Origin: Verrucomicrobiota bacterium | GTDB lineage: Bacteria > Verrucomicrobiota > Verrucomicrobiia > Limisphaerales > JACRJY01 | Reading direction: 5' to 3' | Length of the DNA stretch: 32,540 bases | NCBI GenBank assembly: GCA_016235585.1 | Contig: JACRJY010000194.1 | Coordinates: 1-32,540 of the forward strand | Shown: one piece after another, positions 5,810-26,358 of the stretch | Position numbering within the stretch: the first letter of the stretch is position 1 | How the letters are laid out: each line of letters starts with the position of its first letter | Made by a program: the position numbers and the translations under genes | The notes under the pieces: model-generated | Seen by the model: the letters and a program-made list of their open reading frames with translations, nothing else | Told to the model about the DNA's origin: nothing | Database searches by the model: none

Positions 5810-6883
5810 TCACTTCTTTGGCCGGGCATCGGGCGGCGCGGTTTCCGCCGACCACACTTCCGTCGAGCGCACGCCGGGCCGCGCCTCGCCGCCGGGGATG
5901 ACGATGCGCCCGTTCCACCCGACCGCCGGCGTGGTCACGAGCGAGAAGGGCACTTCGCCCAGCGTCTCCCATTTGTCCGCCTGCGGATCGTAGGCCAGCA
6001 CGGTGCGGGGAAAGCCTTTGTGCTCCGTGGGCGGCGTGCTGACCTGCGCGCCATCATCGCCGCCGAGGATGAGCAGCCTGCCATTCACCACCGGCGCGGG
6101 CGACGGCGCGGCGACGGCGACGCGCGGCAGGTCGGCGATGCGTTTCCAGCCCTCGTCCGGCTTGAAGCGATAGGCGTCGCGCAGCCACACACGCTCCGGC
6201 TTGCCGTCCGCGCCCGCCTTGAGCGCCGCGCCGCCGAAAAGAAAAAACACGCCGTCGTTCACCCCGGCGGTGGCGAGCATCCGCGCCGGGCCGGGCCAGG
6301 TGGGCAAAGCCGTCCAGCGGTCACCGCGCCAGCGCAGGTCGAGCGCGTAGAAGGAATTCAGCGCGCCCGTCGCCGTGGGCGTGGCGATGCCGCCCGCGAG
6401 ATAAGCGACGCCGTCAACGATTGCGCCGCAGGCGTTGGCGGCGGGTTGCGGGAGTTGCGCGAGCGGCTTTTGCTTCAGCTTGCCGTGGCTCCATTCGAGA
6501 ATGAACACGTCGGGAAAATGCCTCGCCGCATCGCTGCCGCCGACGCAGAGCACGCCATCACGAGTCTGGAGCGAAACCCCGTAGCCGATGGGCGCGCGCA
6601 GTTTCCCGACCGCGCGCCACTGGCCAGTTGGTTTTTCGAGGACGAACACTTTGTCATACCAGACCTTCGTGCCGCCTTCCCACGGGCGCTTGTCGGGAAA
6701 GTTCGCACCACCGGCAACCAGAAGCGCGCCGCCGCTCACGCCCGCGAACGGCCACGCGAAACCCTCGCGATCCGGAATGGGAGGGAGCTTCGACCATTGA
6801 AGGGCGGCGGCGACCGCGGGAAGCGAAGAGAAGAGCATGAAAATTAGAGCGCAGGCCACTGGGCTTGCGGCGGACAGTTTCAT
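5810..6883 (-). CDS. Exported kelch-repeat protein, NanM-like (mutarotase-type beta-propeller)
   Basis: The protein is 357 aa with a signal peptide (MKLSAASPVACALIFMLFSSLPAVAAA). Repeated kelch blades with Gly-Gly pairs are visible: ALLVAGGANFPD, VLCVGGSDAA, VAYLAGGIATP, VFFLFGGAALK, RLLILGGDDG and RIVIPGGEA, about six blades, the size of a single propeller. The first blade (LPPIPDREGFAWPFAGV...GGANFPDKRPWEGG) closely resembles N-acetylneuraminate mutarotases (NanM), which convert alpha- to beta-sialic acid in the periplasm. Its ATG overlaps the sulfatase TGA (ATGA at 6883-6880). Pairing with a sialidase-like protein and an AGE epimerase supports amino-sugar or sialic-acid chemistry but does not prove it. 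An alternative is another kelch carbohydrate-binding protein. Confidence 0.85.
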   Translation of the reverse strand: MKLSAASPVACALIFMLFSSLPAVAAALQWSKLPPIPDREGFAWPFAGVSGGALLVAGGANFPDKRPWEGGTKVWYDKVFVLEKPTGQWRAVGKLRAPIGYGVSLQTRDGVLCVGGSDAARHFPDVFILEWSHGKLKQKPLAQLPQPAANACGAIVDGVAYLAGGIATPTATGALNSFYALDLRWRGDRWTALPTWPGPARMLATAGVNDGVFFLFGGAALKAGADGKPERVWLRDAYRFKPDEGWKRIADLPRVAVAAPSPAPVVNGRLLILGGDDGAQVSTPPTEHKGFPRTVLAYDPQADKWETLGEVPFSLVTTPAVGWNGRIVIPGGEARPGVRSTEVWSAETAPPDARPKK

Positions 6884-8379
6884 TTTGCCCCTTTCTTCTT
6901 CCCTTTTGCCGGTGGCGGCGGGGTGTATTCAGGCCTGGCCGGATCGTGATTGGGATTCGGCACCGGCATCTGCGCGCCGACTTCCTTGCGCCACGCGTGC
7001 AGGCGGGTGCGGAGTGCAGCAGCCTTCTCCGGCATCGTGGCGGCGAGGTCGCGCTGTTCGCCGATGTCCGCGCGGAGGTTGTAAAGCTCCACGTGCATAT
7101 CGTTGAAGAACTCGATGAGCTTGAAATCACCGGAGCGAATCGCGCCATAGCACATCGCGCCGCCGAGTTGGTAATGCTGGTGGTGCGGGTAATGCCAGAA
7201 CAGATCGCGCGCGGGCAGCGAACCCGTGCCGCGCAGCAAAGGAACGAGGCTCACGCCGTCGCGGCCCGGAGCGCCGGTTTCCGAACCGGCCCGTTCGCGT
7301 CCGCCTTGTGGACGCGCCGAACCGGAGTTCGGCGCTCCAAGCCCGGCGGCTTCCACCAGCGTCACAAACCAGTCCATCGTGATGACGGGTGTGCTGTTGG
7401 TGCTGCCGGGCTGGGTGACGCCGGGCCACCTCACGATGGCGGGCACGCGCACGCCGCCCTCGTAGGCGGAGGCCTTGCCGAGACGCAGCGGGGCATTGGT
7501 CGTGGTGCCGCGCGTGATGAGGCCGCCGTTGTCCGACGTGAAGGCGACGAGCGTGCGGTCGGCGAGCTTCAGTTCGTCGAGCTTGCCGAGCACGCGCCCG
7601 ACGGCGGCATCGAGACTCTCGATCATCGCGGCGTAGGTGACGTTGGTGTGCCGCAGGCCGGGGCGAAGCTTGTGCCGGTATTTCTCGACGAGATCGGCGC
7701 GTCCTTGAATCGGCGTGTGAACGGCGAAGTGCGGCAGGTAGAGGAAGAACGGCTTGTCCTTCGACTTCTCGATGAACTGCGCCGCTTCGTCGCCGAGCCT
7801 GTCGGTCAGATACTCGCCCGGCTTGCCTTCAGCAAGCGTCTTGATGCCGTAGGGCGCGAAATACGTCGGCGGCGAACCGGCGTTGAGGCCGGCCACGTTG
7901 ACATCGAAGCCGTGCTTCTCGGGGAAATACGGCTCATCGCCGAGGTGCCATTTGCCCATGCTCGCGGTCGCGTAGCCGGCGGATTGAAACACTTTCGCAA
8001 TGCACGTCTCCTCCAGCGGCAACTCTTTCGTCCAGTCCGGCACGAGCAGCTTCGGGTTGTCCGGCATCCGGCCGGGAATCCAGTCGGTGATGTGCAGCCG
8101 CGCCGGATACTTCCCCGTCATCAACGCCGAGCGCGTCGGCGAACACACGGTGCAGGCGGAATAATTCTGCGTGAACTTCATCCCGGTGCGCGCCAGCCGG
8201 TCGAGATTGGGCGTCTCGTAGAAGTCGCTGCCGAAGCAAGCGAGGTCGGTCCAGCCGAGGTCGTCGGCGAGGATGAGCACGACGTTGTGCTTGGCCGCGG
8301 ACGACTGCGCTTGCGCCAGCGGGGCGTTGAGTAGGGCCGCGAGGCCGATGACGATGAAAGTGAGGAGTCTATTTCGCAT
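6880..8379 (-). CDS. Exported sulfatase (arylsulfatase A-like, 499 aa)
   Basis: It starts at ATG 8379 (MRNRLLTFIVIGLAALLNAPLAQAQ, a good signal peptide); an ATG four codons upstream at 8391 is possible. HNVVLILADDLGWTDLACFG (31-50) holds the metal aspartates D39/D40. CSPTR (79-83) is the formylglycine signature. GKWHLGD, the FVAFTSDNGG-type strand (here LVAFTSDNGG) and YEGGVRVPAIVRWPG complete the sulfatase core; the C-terminal part has DLFWHYPHH and FKLIEFF. Residues about 348-371 (GAPNSGSARPQGG...GAPGRDG) interrupt the usual link between VEAAGL and DGVSLVPLL. They are encoded by the repeat at 7268-7338. The gene overlaps the upstream phosphodiesterase by 11 bases and the downstream kelch gene by 4. 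Confidence 0.95.
   Translation of the reverse strand: MRNRLLTFIVIGLAALLNAPLAQAQSSAAKHNVVLILADDLGWTDLACFGSDFYETPNLDRLARTGMKFTQNYSACTVCSPTRSALMTGKYPARLHITDWIPGRMPDNPKLLVPDWTKELPLEETCIAKVFQSAGYATASMGKWHLGDEPYFPEKHGFDVNVAGLNAGSPPTYFAPYGIKTLAEGKPGEYLTDRLGDEAAQFIEKSKDKPFFLYLPHFAVHTPIQGRADLVEKYRHKLRPGLRHTNVTYAAMIESLDAAVGRVLGKLDELKLADRTLVAFTSDNGGLITRGTTTNAPLRLGKASAYEGGVRVPAIVRWPGVTQPGSTNSTPVITMDWFVTLVEAAGLGAPNSGSARPQGGRERAGSETGAPGRDGVSLVPLLRGTGSLPARDLFWHYPHHQHYQLGGAMCYGAIRSGDFKLIEFFNDMHVELYNLRADIGEQRDLAATMPEKAAALRTRLHAWRKEVGAQMPVPNPNHDPARPEYTPPPPAKGKKKGAK
7268..7338. repeat. 71-bp cloverleaf-shaped palindromic repeat, in frame in the sulfatase gene
   Basis: Terminal arms ggagcgccg (7268-7276) and cggcgctcc (7330-7338) are exact inverted repeats. 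Inside lie three perfect hairpins: 7273-7279 with 7284-7290 (gccggtt/aaccggc), 7297-7302 with 7310-7315 (gcgtcc/ggacgc), and 7316-7322 with 7327-7333 (gccgaac/gttcggc). With the ggagc/gctcc end stem this can fold as a four-way cloverleaf. It keeps the reading frame open and encodes a Gly/Ala/Pro/Ser/Arg linker. It is presumably a copy of a dispersed non-autonomous repeat. Confidence 0.85.
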
Positions 8380-9334
8380 GGAAGTAATCATTCTTGGATG
8401 GCGGAACGGGAGTTGAACCGTAGAGCATCGGCCCCAACTGGCGCGGGATGTCCGTCTCGATCAAGTCCGCGCCACGTTTGAGGAACGCGCGGTAGTCCGG
8501 TTCGAGCAGCTTTATGTCGCTCACCTGGCGGGTGATGAATTTCCGATCGAGGTTCCGCGACGTGCCGATCATGCACAGCGCGCCGCGCTGGTGGATCATC
8601 GCATACAGCCCCGCATCCTCCGGCGGAACGTGCCCGACGAACGCGACGACGTTGCGCCACGGAACGCCGAGCTTGTCGAACTCGGCGACCTTCGCGACGT
8701 TCGGAATCATCACCTCCATGAAGATGTTCGTGTTCAGCGCGTGAACCGCTTGAACGTCCTTGAAGCTGTTGACGATCAGCATCGCGTAACCCTCGGCCTT
8801 GTGCTCCGCGACCTTTCGCGCGCGCTCCACGGCGGGAACATCCTTCTGATCCAGCACGAGGATGGTTTTGCCGCGCGCCCATTCGAGCGCCTCGCCGAGC
8901 GTGGGCATTTGAAACGCGATGACGTTGCCTTCGGTGTCCTTGAGCTTGAGTTGCTTCAACTCCGCCAGCGTGAAATCCGTGACGCGCCCCTTGCCCGTGG
9001 TCGTGCGTTCCAGCGTGGTGTCGTGATGCACCACGATCGCGCCGTCCTTCGTGTAGCGCGGATCAATCTCCAGCGTGGCGAACGAGTGCTTGAGCGTTTC
9101 CTCAAACGTGGGGAGGCAGTTCTCCGGCCAGCCCCTTGCCGCGCCGCCGCGATGCGCGCTGATAAAGGGGAGCGGTTCGCCGGTGTGCTGGAAGAGCGCT
9201 TGCAGTCCCTGGGGCGTCTGCGGGTCAAGTCGGTGCAGGCGGGGCGAGGGCTCCGCCGCATGGCCGATGGAAGGCGCGAGGATGACGACCAGCATCAGCA
9301 ACGCCGCGCGGTATTCGTGCCCATTCGTGTTCAT
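8369..9334 (-). CDS. Exported glycerophosphodiester phosphodiesterase family protein
   Basis: The protein is 321 aa with a TIM-barrel GDPD fold. FISAHRGGAARGWPENCLPTF (58-77) carries the catalytic-type His61 and the PEN motif. LEIDPRYTKDGAIVVHHDTTLERTT (88-112) carries E89/D91 and the second His104-Asp105. TILVLDQKD supplies a further acidic metal ligand. The family cleaves glycerophosphodiesters to glycerol-3-phosphate plus alcohol; related proteins act on other phosphodiesters. The signal peptide is RAALLMLVVILAPSIGHAA. The first nine residues (MNTNGHEYR) derive from a repeat at the gene border, so the true start could instead be the ATG at residue 14. It lies 7 bases after the FAD oxidoreductase gene and overlaps the sulfatase. 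Confidence 0.9.
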   Translation of the reverse strand: MNTNGHEYRAALLMLVVILAPSIGHAAEPSPRLHRLDPQTPQGLQALFQHTGEPLPFISAHRGGAARGWPENCLPTFEETLKHSFATLEIDPRYTKDGAIVVHHDTTLERTTTGKGRVTDFTLAELKQLKLKDTEGNVIAFQMPTLGEALEWARGKTILVLDQKDVPAVERARKVAEHKAEGYAMLIVNSFKDVQAVHALNTNIFMEVMIPNVAKVAEFDKLGVPWRNVVAFVGHVPPEDAGLYAMIHQRGALCMIGTSRNLDRKFITRQVSDIKLLEPDYRAFLKRGADLIETDIPRQLGPMLYGSTPVPPSKNDYFHAK

Positions 9335-26250: not shown

Positions 26251-26358
26251 TTTAGCCACGGATGGAACACGGATGAAACACGGATAATTTGGCCCGACAG
26301 CGAAGAACAACTGCGGTTTCCCCATCTGTGTTTAATCTGTGTTTCATCTGTGGCTAAA
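26251..26358. repeat. Inverted pair of CCACGGATGGAACACGGAT repeats (36-nt arms)
   Basis: The left arm is 26251-26286 (tttagccacggatggaacac, then ggatgaaacacggata). The right arm, 26323-26358, is its near-complement (catctgtgtttaatctgtgt, then ttcatctgtggctaaa). Six of 36 positions differ, mostly G versus A, so in RNA many would be G-U pairs. The ~36-base loop carries nothing recognisable. The pair fills the 121-base gap between transaldolase and nitrilase genes. Confidence 0.9.

What the first reader, a model, noticed from the sequence alone, without database searches (positions are those of the whole stretch)
7268..7338. Cloverleaf-shaped 71-bp palindromic element inserted in frame in a sulfatase
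Exact inverted ends (ggagcgccg/cggcgctcc) enclose three consecutive perfect hairpins (7, 6 and 7 bp), so the element can fold as a four-way cloverleaf of tRNA size. It sits where sulfatases normally link VEAAG to DGVSLVPLL, and adds about 24 residues without breaking the frame. Palindromic elements that enter genes in frame are known in Rickettsia (RPE). This resembles an independent family in a Verrucomicrobial-type genome, with a DNA or RNA fold that may be recognised by a transposase or processing enzyme.
Basis: partly seen in the sequence, partly recalled or inferred. Interest (0 to 1): 0.7.

Follow-up and report, generated by a model that had tools for sequence, protein, structure and literature searches.

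The report
Mobile hairpin repeat inside sulfatase gene
This 71-base DNA piece is one of at least 76 paired-hairpin repeats in its genome; it lies in frame in a sulfatase gene, where it is predicted to add a floppy loop, and it was likely put there by a mobile-DNA mechanism that seems to hit the same protein loops repeatedly in related bacteria.

Summary
Window 7268-7338 is two inverted 23-nt hairpin units (GGAGCGCCG...TCC...CGGC) around a 25-nt spacer: a REPIN-type doublet. The genome holds 174 unit matches (control 0) and at least 76 doublets. The cloverleaf is not supported: the middle hairpin is peculiar to this copy. Stem pairs covary inside units, not between them.

Two settings exist. 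In 51 of 76 the doublet has arms of a larger repeat, mostly (47) a roughly 130-bp element with inverted arms, often with 9-bp target duplications; an ISKra4-like transposase ORF lies between such arms elsewhere. The other 25, including this one, are bare; 11 of them lie in genes, read in frame.

The sulfatase copy encodes residues 352-375, a low-confidence loop in an AlphaFold model, yet the protein is only 12 residues longer than its closest listed relative. Other sulfatases carry repeat-coded inserts in the same loop. An aldehyde dehydrogenase loop is empty in 24 of 36 genomes read and holds GGAG/GGAA-ended inserts in 8.

What moves bare doublets was not found; a Y1-type transposase is inferred. 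REP doublets inside ORFs are published (Opitutus terrae), so this is a new variant of a known kind.

The parts
7268..7338 (.). bare REPIN-type doublet of two inverted GGAG-tagged REP units, 71 bp
   Evidence: sequence; model R1 match in own genome, 73.2 bits, E 5e-12 (this copy is one of the 21 in the model); no outer arms
7268..7290 (+). REP unit 1: GGAG tag plus hairpin GCCGGTT/TCCG/AACCGGC
   Evidence: exact match to the unit pattern
7291..7315 (.). 25-nt spacer, the commonest length (34 of 76 doublets); contains the copy-specific hairpin GCGTCC/GGACGC at 7297-7315
7316..7338 (-). REP unit 2 (inverted): GGAG tag plus hairpin GCCGAAC/TCCG/GTTCGGC
   Evidence: found with 4 substitutions against the typed consensus; second half of the model R1 match
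6880..8391 (-). sulfatase gene (PF00884, PF16347, PF01663), 503 aa; element encodes residues 352-375

Best explanation
The element is a bare copy of a multi-copy REPIN-type family (two inverted GGAG-tagged hairpin units) lying in frame in a sulfatase gene, and it was likely inserted as a single-stranded hairpin DNA by a Y1/HUH (RAYT-like) transposase acting in trans. Shown: the family, its doublet organisation, covariation inside each unit, 25 bare doublets of which 11 lie in genes and are read through in frame, no flanking duplication at the doublet ends, and repeat-coded inserts in the same sulfatase loop in other lineages. Also shown: most other copies sit inside a larger, armed repeat, often with 9-bp target duplications, which is likely moved by an ISKra4-type transposase; the window copy has no such arms. 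Inferred: the Y1 transposase, the single-strand route, and the reason for survival. Copies that keep the frame and fall in a surface loop or domain linker would persist because the encoded peptide is likely flexible and harmless, so a few loops would be filled again and again by whichever REP families are active in each genome.
For: Copy number: 174 unit matches at up to 2 mismatches, control 0; at least 76 doublets. Bare doublets only: stem pair 11-18 is paired in 39 of 50 units (T-A 21, A-T 17) against 19.4 in shuffles (highest 30), pair 10-19 in 49 of 50 against 35.6; pairing between the two units is at chance (position 11: 9 of 25 against 11.2). No exact flanking duplication of 4 or more bp in 42 doublets without both arm tips, as expected for HUH insertion (recalled). 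In-gene: 11 of 25 bare doublets (10 by codon usage, C151 by Pfam); the classifier calls 1386 of 3000 random stretches in-gene. Host ORFs: 9 of 10 tested have Pfam domains. Window sulfatase: nearest rows in the tree lack the insert. ALDH loop: 24 of 36 loci read are empty, 8 carry GGAG/GGAA-ended inserts with different stems. The stems in the G149 and G151 ALDH loops are multi-copy in those genomes (15 and 71 matches). AlphaFold puts residues 355-370 below pLDDT 50.
Against: No Y1 transposase gene with this unit nearby: 0 of 7 in this genome; in ten relatives 58 matches, 30 fetched as loci, 1 weak unit-like match. Only this stem type was looked for there. Most doublets (51 of 76) carry arms of a larger repeat, so the high copy number is largely that repeat's, and the one transposase with matching ends is ISKra4-like, not Y1. 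Net insert lengths do not equal the element length (sulfatase +12 residues for a 24-residue element; own ALDH +21 for a 70-bp element), so no clean empty site was seen. The native linker of a relative resembles the REP end. Trees are quick ones with many open forks.
Confidence: 0.5

Rival explanations
1. Bare doublets spread by replication template switching or gene conversion at short REP-like sequence, not by a transposase; protein loops are refilled because an older REP remnant is already there.
For: No Y1 gene with this unit nearby. Native linker DNA of a relative without the insert (L101) reads ..ACCGGCGCTTCC.. where the element ends ..ACCGGCGCTCC. Inserts of different families sit at the same ALDH position.
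Against: 43 of 120 ALDH homologues have the shortest loop, AGTKKK or near it in those printed, without REP-like residues, so an empty state without a remnant exists.
Confidence: 0.25
2. The doublet is only a passenger: an ISKra4-type transposase moves the armed repeat that carries it, and the window copy is an old armed copy that lost its arms.
For: 47 of 76 doublets have at least one arm; tips on both sides in 34, of which 16 have a 9-bp duplication with at most 1 mismatch (control 0.3%). A 369-aa ISKra4-like ORF lies between such arms, C105:6438-7815. One in-gene copy (C95, Ppx/GppA) is armed; its 133 bp plus an 8-bp duplication make 47 codons.
Against: The window copy has no arm on either side. 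In-gene copies are bare in 11 of 12 (Fisher 7e-6) and bare units differ in stem type (pair 12-17 formed in 18 of 50 bare against 1 of 102 other units).
Confidence: 0.12
3. The in-gene hairpin has a selected role for the host, for example slowing translation between domains, so its structure is kept.
For: The coding-strand RNA folds unusually well (z -5.3). Among bare units pair 12-17 is formed in 13 of 22 in-gene and 5 of 28 other units (Fisher 0.004). The G016 sulfatase copy keeps 43 of 46 unit bases while 14 of 25 spacer bases differ.
Against: The nearest rows in the sulfatase tree lack the insert, and 24 of 36 ALDH loci read lack one.
Confidence: 0.1
4. Ordinary native coding sequence that happens to be palindromic, or a tRNA-like cloverleaf.
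For: The frame is open and the flanks are conserved; three hairpins can be drawn.
Against: 174 unit matches against 0 control; 101 of 120 rows have other linkers; the middle hairpin is not a family feature.
Confidence: 0.03

Closest known systems
GTAG-tagged REPs and REPINs (Bertels and Rainey 2011, PMC3116915; Di Nocera et al. 2013, PMC3733652), including those of Opitutus terrae
   Same: Short tagged palindromes, often inverted doublets with spacers and often of unlike units; in O. terrae also inside ORFs, and intragenic inserts there and elsewhere often encode 20-30 residues (passages)
   Different: Tag is GGAG (123 of 152 units) or GGAA (20 of 152), not GTAG; no REP-flanked RAYT found; most copies lie inside an armed repeat; the same loops are filled across genera
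Rickettsia palindromic elements (RPE)
   Same: Palindromes inserted in frame in many unrelated genes (passages)
   Different: REP-like RPEs carry a CGTC tag; others are about 150 bp; sequences themselves were not compared
MITEs, here of ISKra4 type
   Same: The armed form in this genome: inverted arms, 9-bp target duplications, an ISKra4-like ORF between such arms
   Different: The window copy has neither arms nor duplication

Membership tests
REP/REPIN | imperfect palindrome of about 20-60 nt, many copies in the genome | tested here: met
   23-nt unit, 174 matches, control 0
REP/REPIN | units occur mainly as inverted doublets | tested here: met
   at least 76 doublets; 174 unit matches at up to 2 mismatches
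REP/REPIN | mostly outside genes | tested here: inconclusive
   12 of 76 doublets in genes overall, but 11 of 25 bare ones, close to the 46% of random stretches called in-gene
REP/REPIN | GTAG tetranucleotide at one end | tested here: not met
   GGAGCG in 123, GGAACG in 20 of 152 units; a GTAT-tagged form with the same hairpin occurs in relative G036
REP/REPIN | a RAYT (Y1 transposase) gene flanked by the same repeat | tested here: not met
   0 of 7 own Y1_Tnp loci; 30 of 58 matches in ten relatives examined, 1 weak unit-like match; genome 90% complete; other stems not looked for
Rickettsia RPE | in-frame insertion in unrelated genes | tested here: met
   12 host genes; only read-through copies can be recognised by this method
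Rickettsia RPE | CGTC tag of REP-like RPEs | tested here: not met
   units end in GGAG or GGAA
MITE (ISKra4 type) | terminal inverted arms of an IS | tested here: not met
   window copy bare; 47 of 76 doublets have at least one arm
MITE (ISKra4 type) | target-site duplication | tested here: not met
   0 of 42 doublets without both arm tips, window included, have 4 bp or more at the doublet ends; 16 of 34 armed ones have 9 bp
ISKra4 transposase (C105 ORF) | NCBIfam ISKra4 model over its cut-off | tested here: inconclusive
   E 1e-42, 146.6 bits, cut-off 205; model positions 71-413 of 422; no Pfam match

The most novel reading that the evidence does not exclude
Limisphaerales-type bacteria carry a GGAG-tagged superfamily of REPINs whose hairpin stems differ between genomes while the tag stays. 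A few loops of core enzymes (an aldehyde dehydrogenase, an L-lactate permease, a sulfatase) act as landing pads that are emptied and refilled in frame by whatever family is active in each genome, so mobile palindromes are a standing source of new protein loops; in the window's genome the same doublet was also captured by an ISKra4-type MITE and amplified with it.
Probability: 0.4. Interest if true: 0.75.

Novelty: new variant of a known kind. Interest (0 to 1): 0.54.

Why it matters
REP insertion into genes was known from single genomes. Here empty and filled alleles of the same enzyme loop can be compared across dozens of genomes, with different palindromes in the same place. That makes two old questions testable: whether insertion into genes is random and filtered by selection or aimed at sites, and whether mobile palindromes add useful protein segments or only tolerated ones. 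The armed repeat adds a case in which a REP doublet rides in an IS-derived element.

Tried and rejected
Cloverleaf: rejected because the middle hairpin is not a family feature. One long hairpin as the conserved form: no support; pairing between units is at chance in bare doublets. In all 76 doublets it was below shuffles at stem positions 10, 11, 18 and 19, but that reflects the armed repeat, whose two units differ and which was amplified. A general threefold depletion from genes: dropped as a statement about this kind of copy, since it comes from the armed repeats (1 of 51 in genes) and not from bare doublets (11 of 25). A shared neighbour gene near the doublets: of the 6 ORFs printed from the best 15, five contain REP-coded stretches. 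A fixed frame for the second unit: first 11 of 11, then C151 was found in another frame, so 11 of 12. The literature query with GGAG listed only unrelated papers among 20.

Limits: the model search scored its best 150 candidates, so 76 is a lower bound; one partial match at a contig end was dropped. The in-gene classifier calls only 45-46% of random stretches in-gene, so in-gene copies may be missed; C106 is a possible further one, without a Pfam match. Four doublets have coding flanks on one strand in different frames, and one has a stop in a flank; I took them as outside genes, and a copy that had broken a gene would hardly be recognised. Arms were found with loose patterns (control 1 of 297 stretches). 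In one search, 18 of 54 ALDH loci did not match my loop motif and were not read.

Full report
WHAT IS THERE. Window 7268-7338 is 71 bp: GGAG + hairpin, a 25-nt spacer, and an inverted GGAG + hairpin. It lies in frame in a 503-aa sulfatase ORF on the minus strand and encodes residues 352-375. Both strands fold better than 200 shuffles, but not as a cloverleaf, and the 9-nt ends overlap the flanking hairpins.

FAMILY. The 80-nt query gave 56 matches in the own genome. The unit pattern GGARCGCCGRNYTCCRANYCGGC has 174 matches at up to 2 mismatches and 0 for the reversed control. A covariance model from 21 doublets finds at least 76 distinct doublets (150 candidates scored). Of 152 units 123 begin GGAGCG and 20 GGAACG; spacers are 25 nt in 34 and 26 nt in 17 of 76. 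A second GGAG pattern, GGAGCGCCGAGCATTGCTCGGC, has 63 matches in the same genome; some places match on both strands. In 58 genomes of the order, window genome included, 44 have a match to the first unit; 12 of the 57 others have 10 or more (G036 124, G016 68, G037 54, G051 54, G049 45, G008 43, G050 24, G054 19, G002 16, G024 14, G026 12, G044 12; control 0-2), and many of the rest only 1 or 2, the level of the control. The closest records to the sulfatase in the named collection are Verrucomicrobia MAGs, one of them called Limisphaerales, but the list of 79 loci also holds many other phyla; the order of the window genome is an inference.

TWO SETTINGS. On checking the flanks I found that 47 of 76 doublets have at least one arm like GGGCGCATCCGGGCANTGCCCCC and 4 another arm; 25 are bare, the window copy among them. 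Loose arm patterns hit 1 of 297 control stretches. Of 34 doublets with arm tips on both sides (108-137 bp long) 16 are flanked by 9-bp direct repeats with at most 1 mismatch, against 0.3% in shuffled pairs. The arm has 35 matches in the genome, control 0; one inverted pair, C105:6438-7815, is 1.4 kb apart and encloses a 369-aa ORF that matches the NCBIfam ISKra4 model at E 1e-42, below its cut-off and without the first 70 positions, and no Pfam family. So most copies ride in an ISKra4-type MITE, probably moved by such an enzyme. Doublets without both tips show no duplication of 4 bp or more (0 of 42).

STRUCTURE. In bare doublets stem pair 11-18 is paired in 39 of 50 units (T-A 21, A-T 17; shuffles 19.4, highest 30) and pair 10-19 in 49 of 50 (shuffles 35.6); pair 12-17 only in 18 of 50 (shuffles 15.6); pairing between units is at chance. 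Over all 76 the pairs inside units look alike (132 of 152 against 68; 144 of 152 against 109), but there copies of the armed repeat are not independent. The spacer shows no family hairpin.

GENES. By codon usage 11 of 76 doublets lie in genes in frame; Pfam adds C151, a PSD-domain protein. Nine of the ten other ORFs tested have Pfam domains: PfkB, Ppx/GppA, a DUF7133-laminin-cytochrome protein, MetH (insert between two domains), aldehyde dehydrogenase, MbnP/MauG, HI0933, CstA, L-lactate permease. Of these 12 copies 11 are bare; 11 of 25 bare and 1 of 51 other doublets are in genes (Fisher 7e-6). Random 71-bp stretches are called in-gene in 894 of 2000 (window) and 1386 of 3000 (doublet loci), so bare doublets are not visibly depleted from genes. 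The method recognises read-through copies only. The armed copy in Ppx/GppA (C95) is 133 bp with an 8-bp flanking repeat, together 47 codons. The second unit is read in the frame that ends G-A/V-P in 11 of 12, the first in three frames (6, 4, 2).

SAME LOOPS AGAIN. Sulfatase: of 120 rows in the tree 101 have a native linker, 9 (window included) a REPIN-coded one, 8 another repeat-like one, 2 a remnant; labels were set by my text patterns. DNA was seen only for the window, G016 and, with a single unit, G049; the others are read from protein. The window protein sits among native-linker proteins (nearest P0003); the REPIN label needs at least 7 changes on a quick tree (shuffled mean 8.8), 4 forced by starred branches. 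Gain and loss cannot be told apart. Against a clean insertion: the linker is only 12 residues longer than in P0003. Window and G016 copies differ at 3 of 46 unit bases and 14 of 25 spacer bases, while the genes are 81% identical and one neighbour gene is shared; this fits one old insertion with a free spacer or two insertions.

ALDEHYDE DEHYDROGENASE. Of 120 listed homologues 43 have the shortest loop region, 29 residues; all others are longer, P0243 because of an apparent tandem duplication. At DNA level 54 genomes gave loci and my motif read 36: 24 empty, 12 longer, of which 8 (own genome included) hold GGAG- or GGAA-ended inserts with different stems, one with a decayed right end and one of 120 nt; 1 holds another palindrome and 3 are short. 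On a quick, poorly resolved tree five labels need 43 changes (shuffled mean 61). I tested two of the eight stems for copy number: those of G149 and G151 have 15 and 71 matches in those genomes. The L-lactate permease loop also holds many different repeat-like inserts (by eye).

TRANSPOSASE FOR BARE DOUBLETS. Seven Y1_Tnp matches exist in the genome; none of the fetched loci contains this unit, although doublets lie about 1.6 kb from the C12 gene and 2.2 kb from the C178 one. In ten relatives there are 58 matches, 30 fetched, one with a weak unit-like match. The three printed are flanked by other hairpins. The Y1 step is an inference from REPIN literature.

PROTEIN. In an AlphaFold model (50 sequences, mean pLDDT 76) residues 355-370 are below 50, between helices 338-348 and 383-387. 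This is a prediction; activity is untested.

LITERATURE. Di Nocera 2013 (PMC3733652; abstract start and passages) reports GTAG and CGTC REPs, heterodimers, O. terrae as the species with most intragenic GTAG repeats, and intragenic inserts of which more than half are dimers or groups encoding 20-30 residues. Bertels and Rainey 2011 (PMC3116915; passages) define REPINs. A MITE review (PMC10969869; passages) summarises RPEs. I found no description of a GGAG-tagged family or of one enzyme loop filled by different REP families in searches (listings); subscription papers are mostly outside that library, and no search for ISKra4 MITEs was made.

VERDICT. A real, mobile-type element and a new variant of a known kind: REPIN-like, GGAG-tagged, bare, in frame, with repeated use of the same protein loops.

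Noticed in passing
G000:C105:6438-7815 (L349): A 1.4-kb stretch bounded by the arms of the armed repeat, with a 369-aa ISKra4-like ORF; no clear target duplication by eye.
   Followed up: partly
G000:C41:36910-37093 (L350): The same arms enclose a different palindrome (GGTAGGGACGACC..) instead of the GGAG doublet.
   Followed up: no
G000:C178 (L035) and C74 (L034): Y1 transposase ORFs read in frame into an AlaS-like and a DnaE-like C-terminal part (by eye); with AlaS the N-terminal part lies in another frame. Assembly error not excluded.
   Followed up: no
L253 (G000:C23 flavoprotein ORF): The HI0933-type ORF carries a second, unlike repeat-like insert (TGILPVQ...RQDACPT) besides the GGAG doublet.
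   Followed up: no
window 26251-26358: A separate inverted repeat with 35-nt arms (86% complementary) rich in CACGGAT motifs.
   Followed up: no
G036 genome: A GTATCGCCGATTTCCAAATCGGC form, same hairpin with another tag, occurs 9 times among the listed places.
   Followed up: no
L-lactate permease homologues P0123-P0242: One loop holds many unlike repeat-like inserts between conserved flanks.
   Followed up: partly
G000 genome: A second GGAG-tagged pattern, GGAGCGCCGAGCATTGCTCGGC, with 63 matches at up to 2 mismatches.
   Followed up: partly
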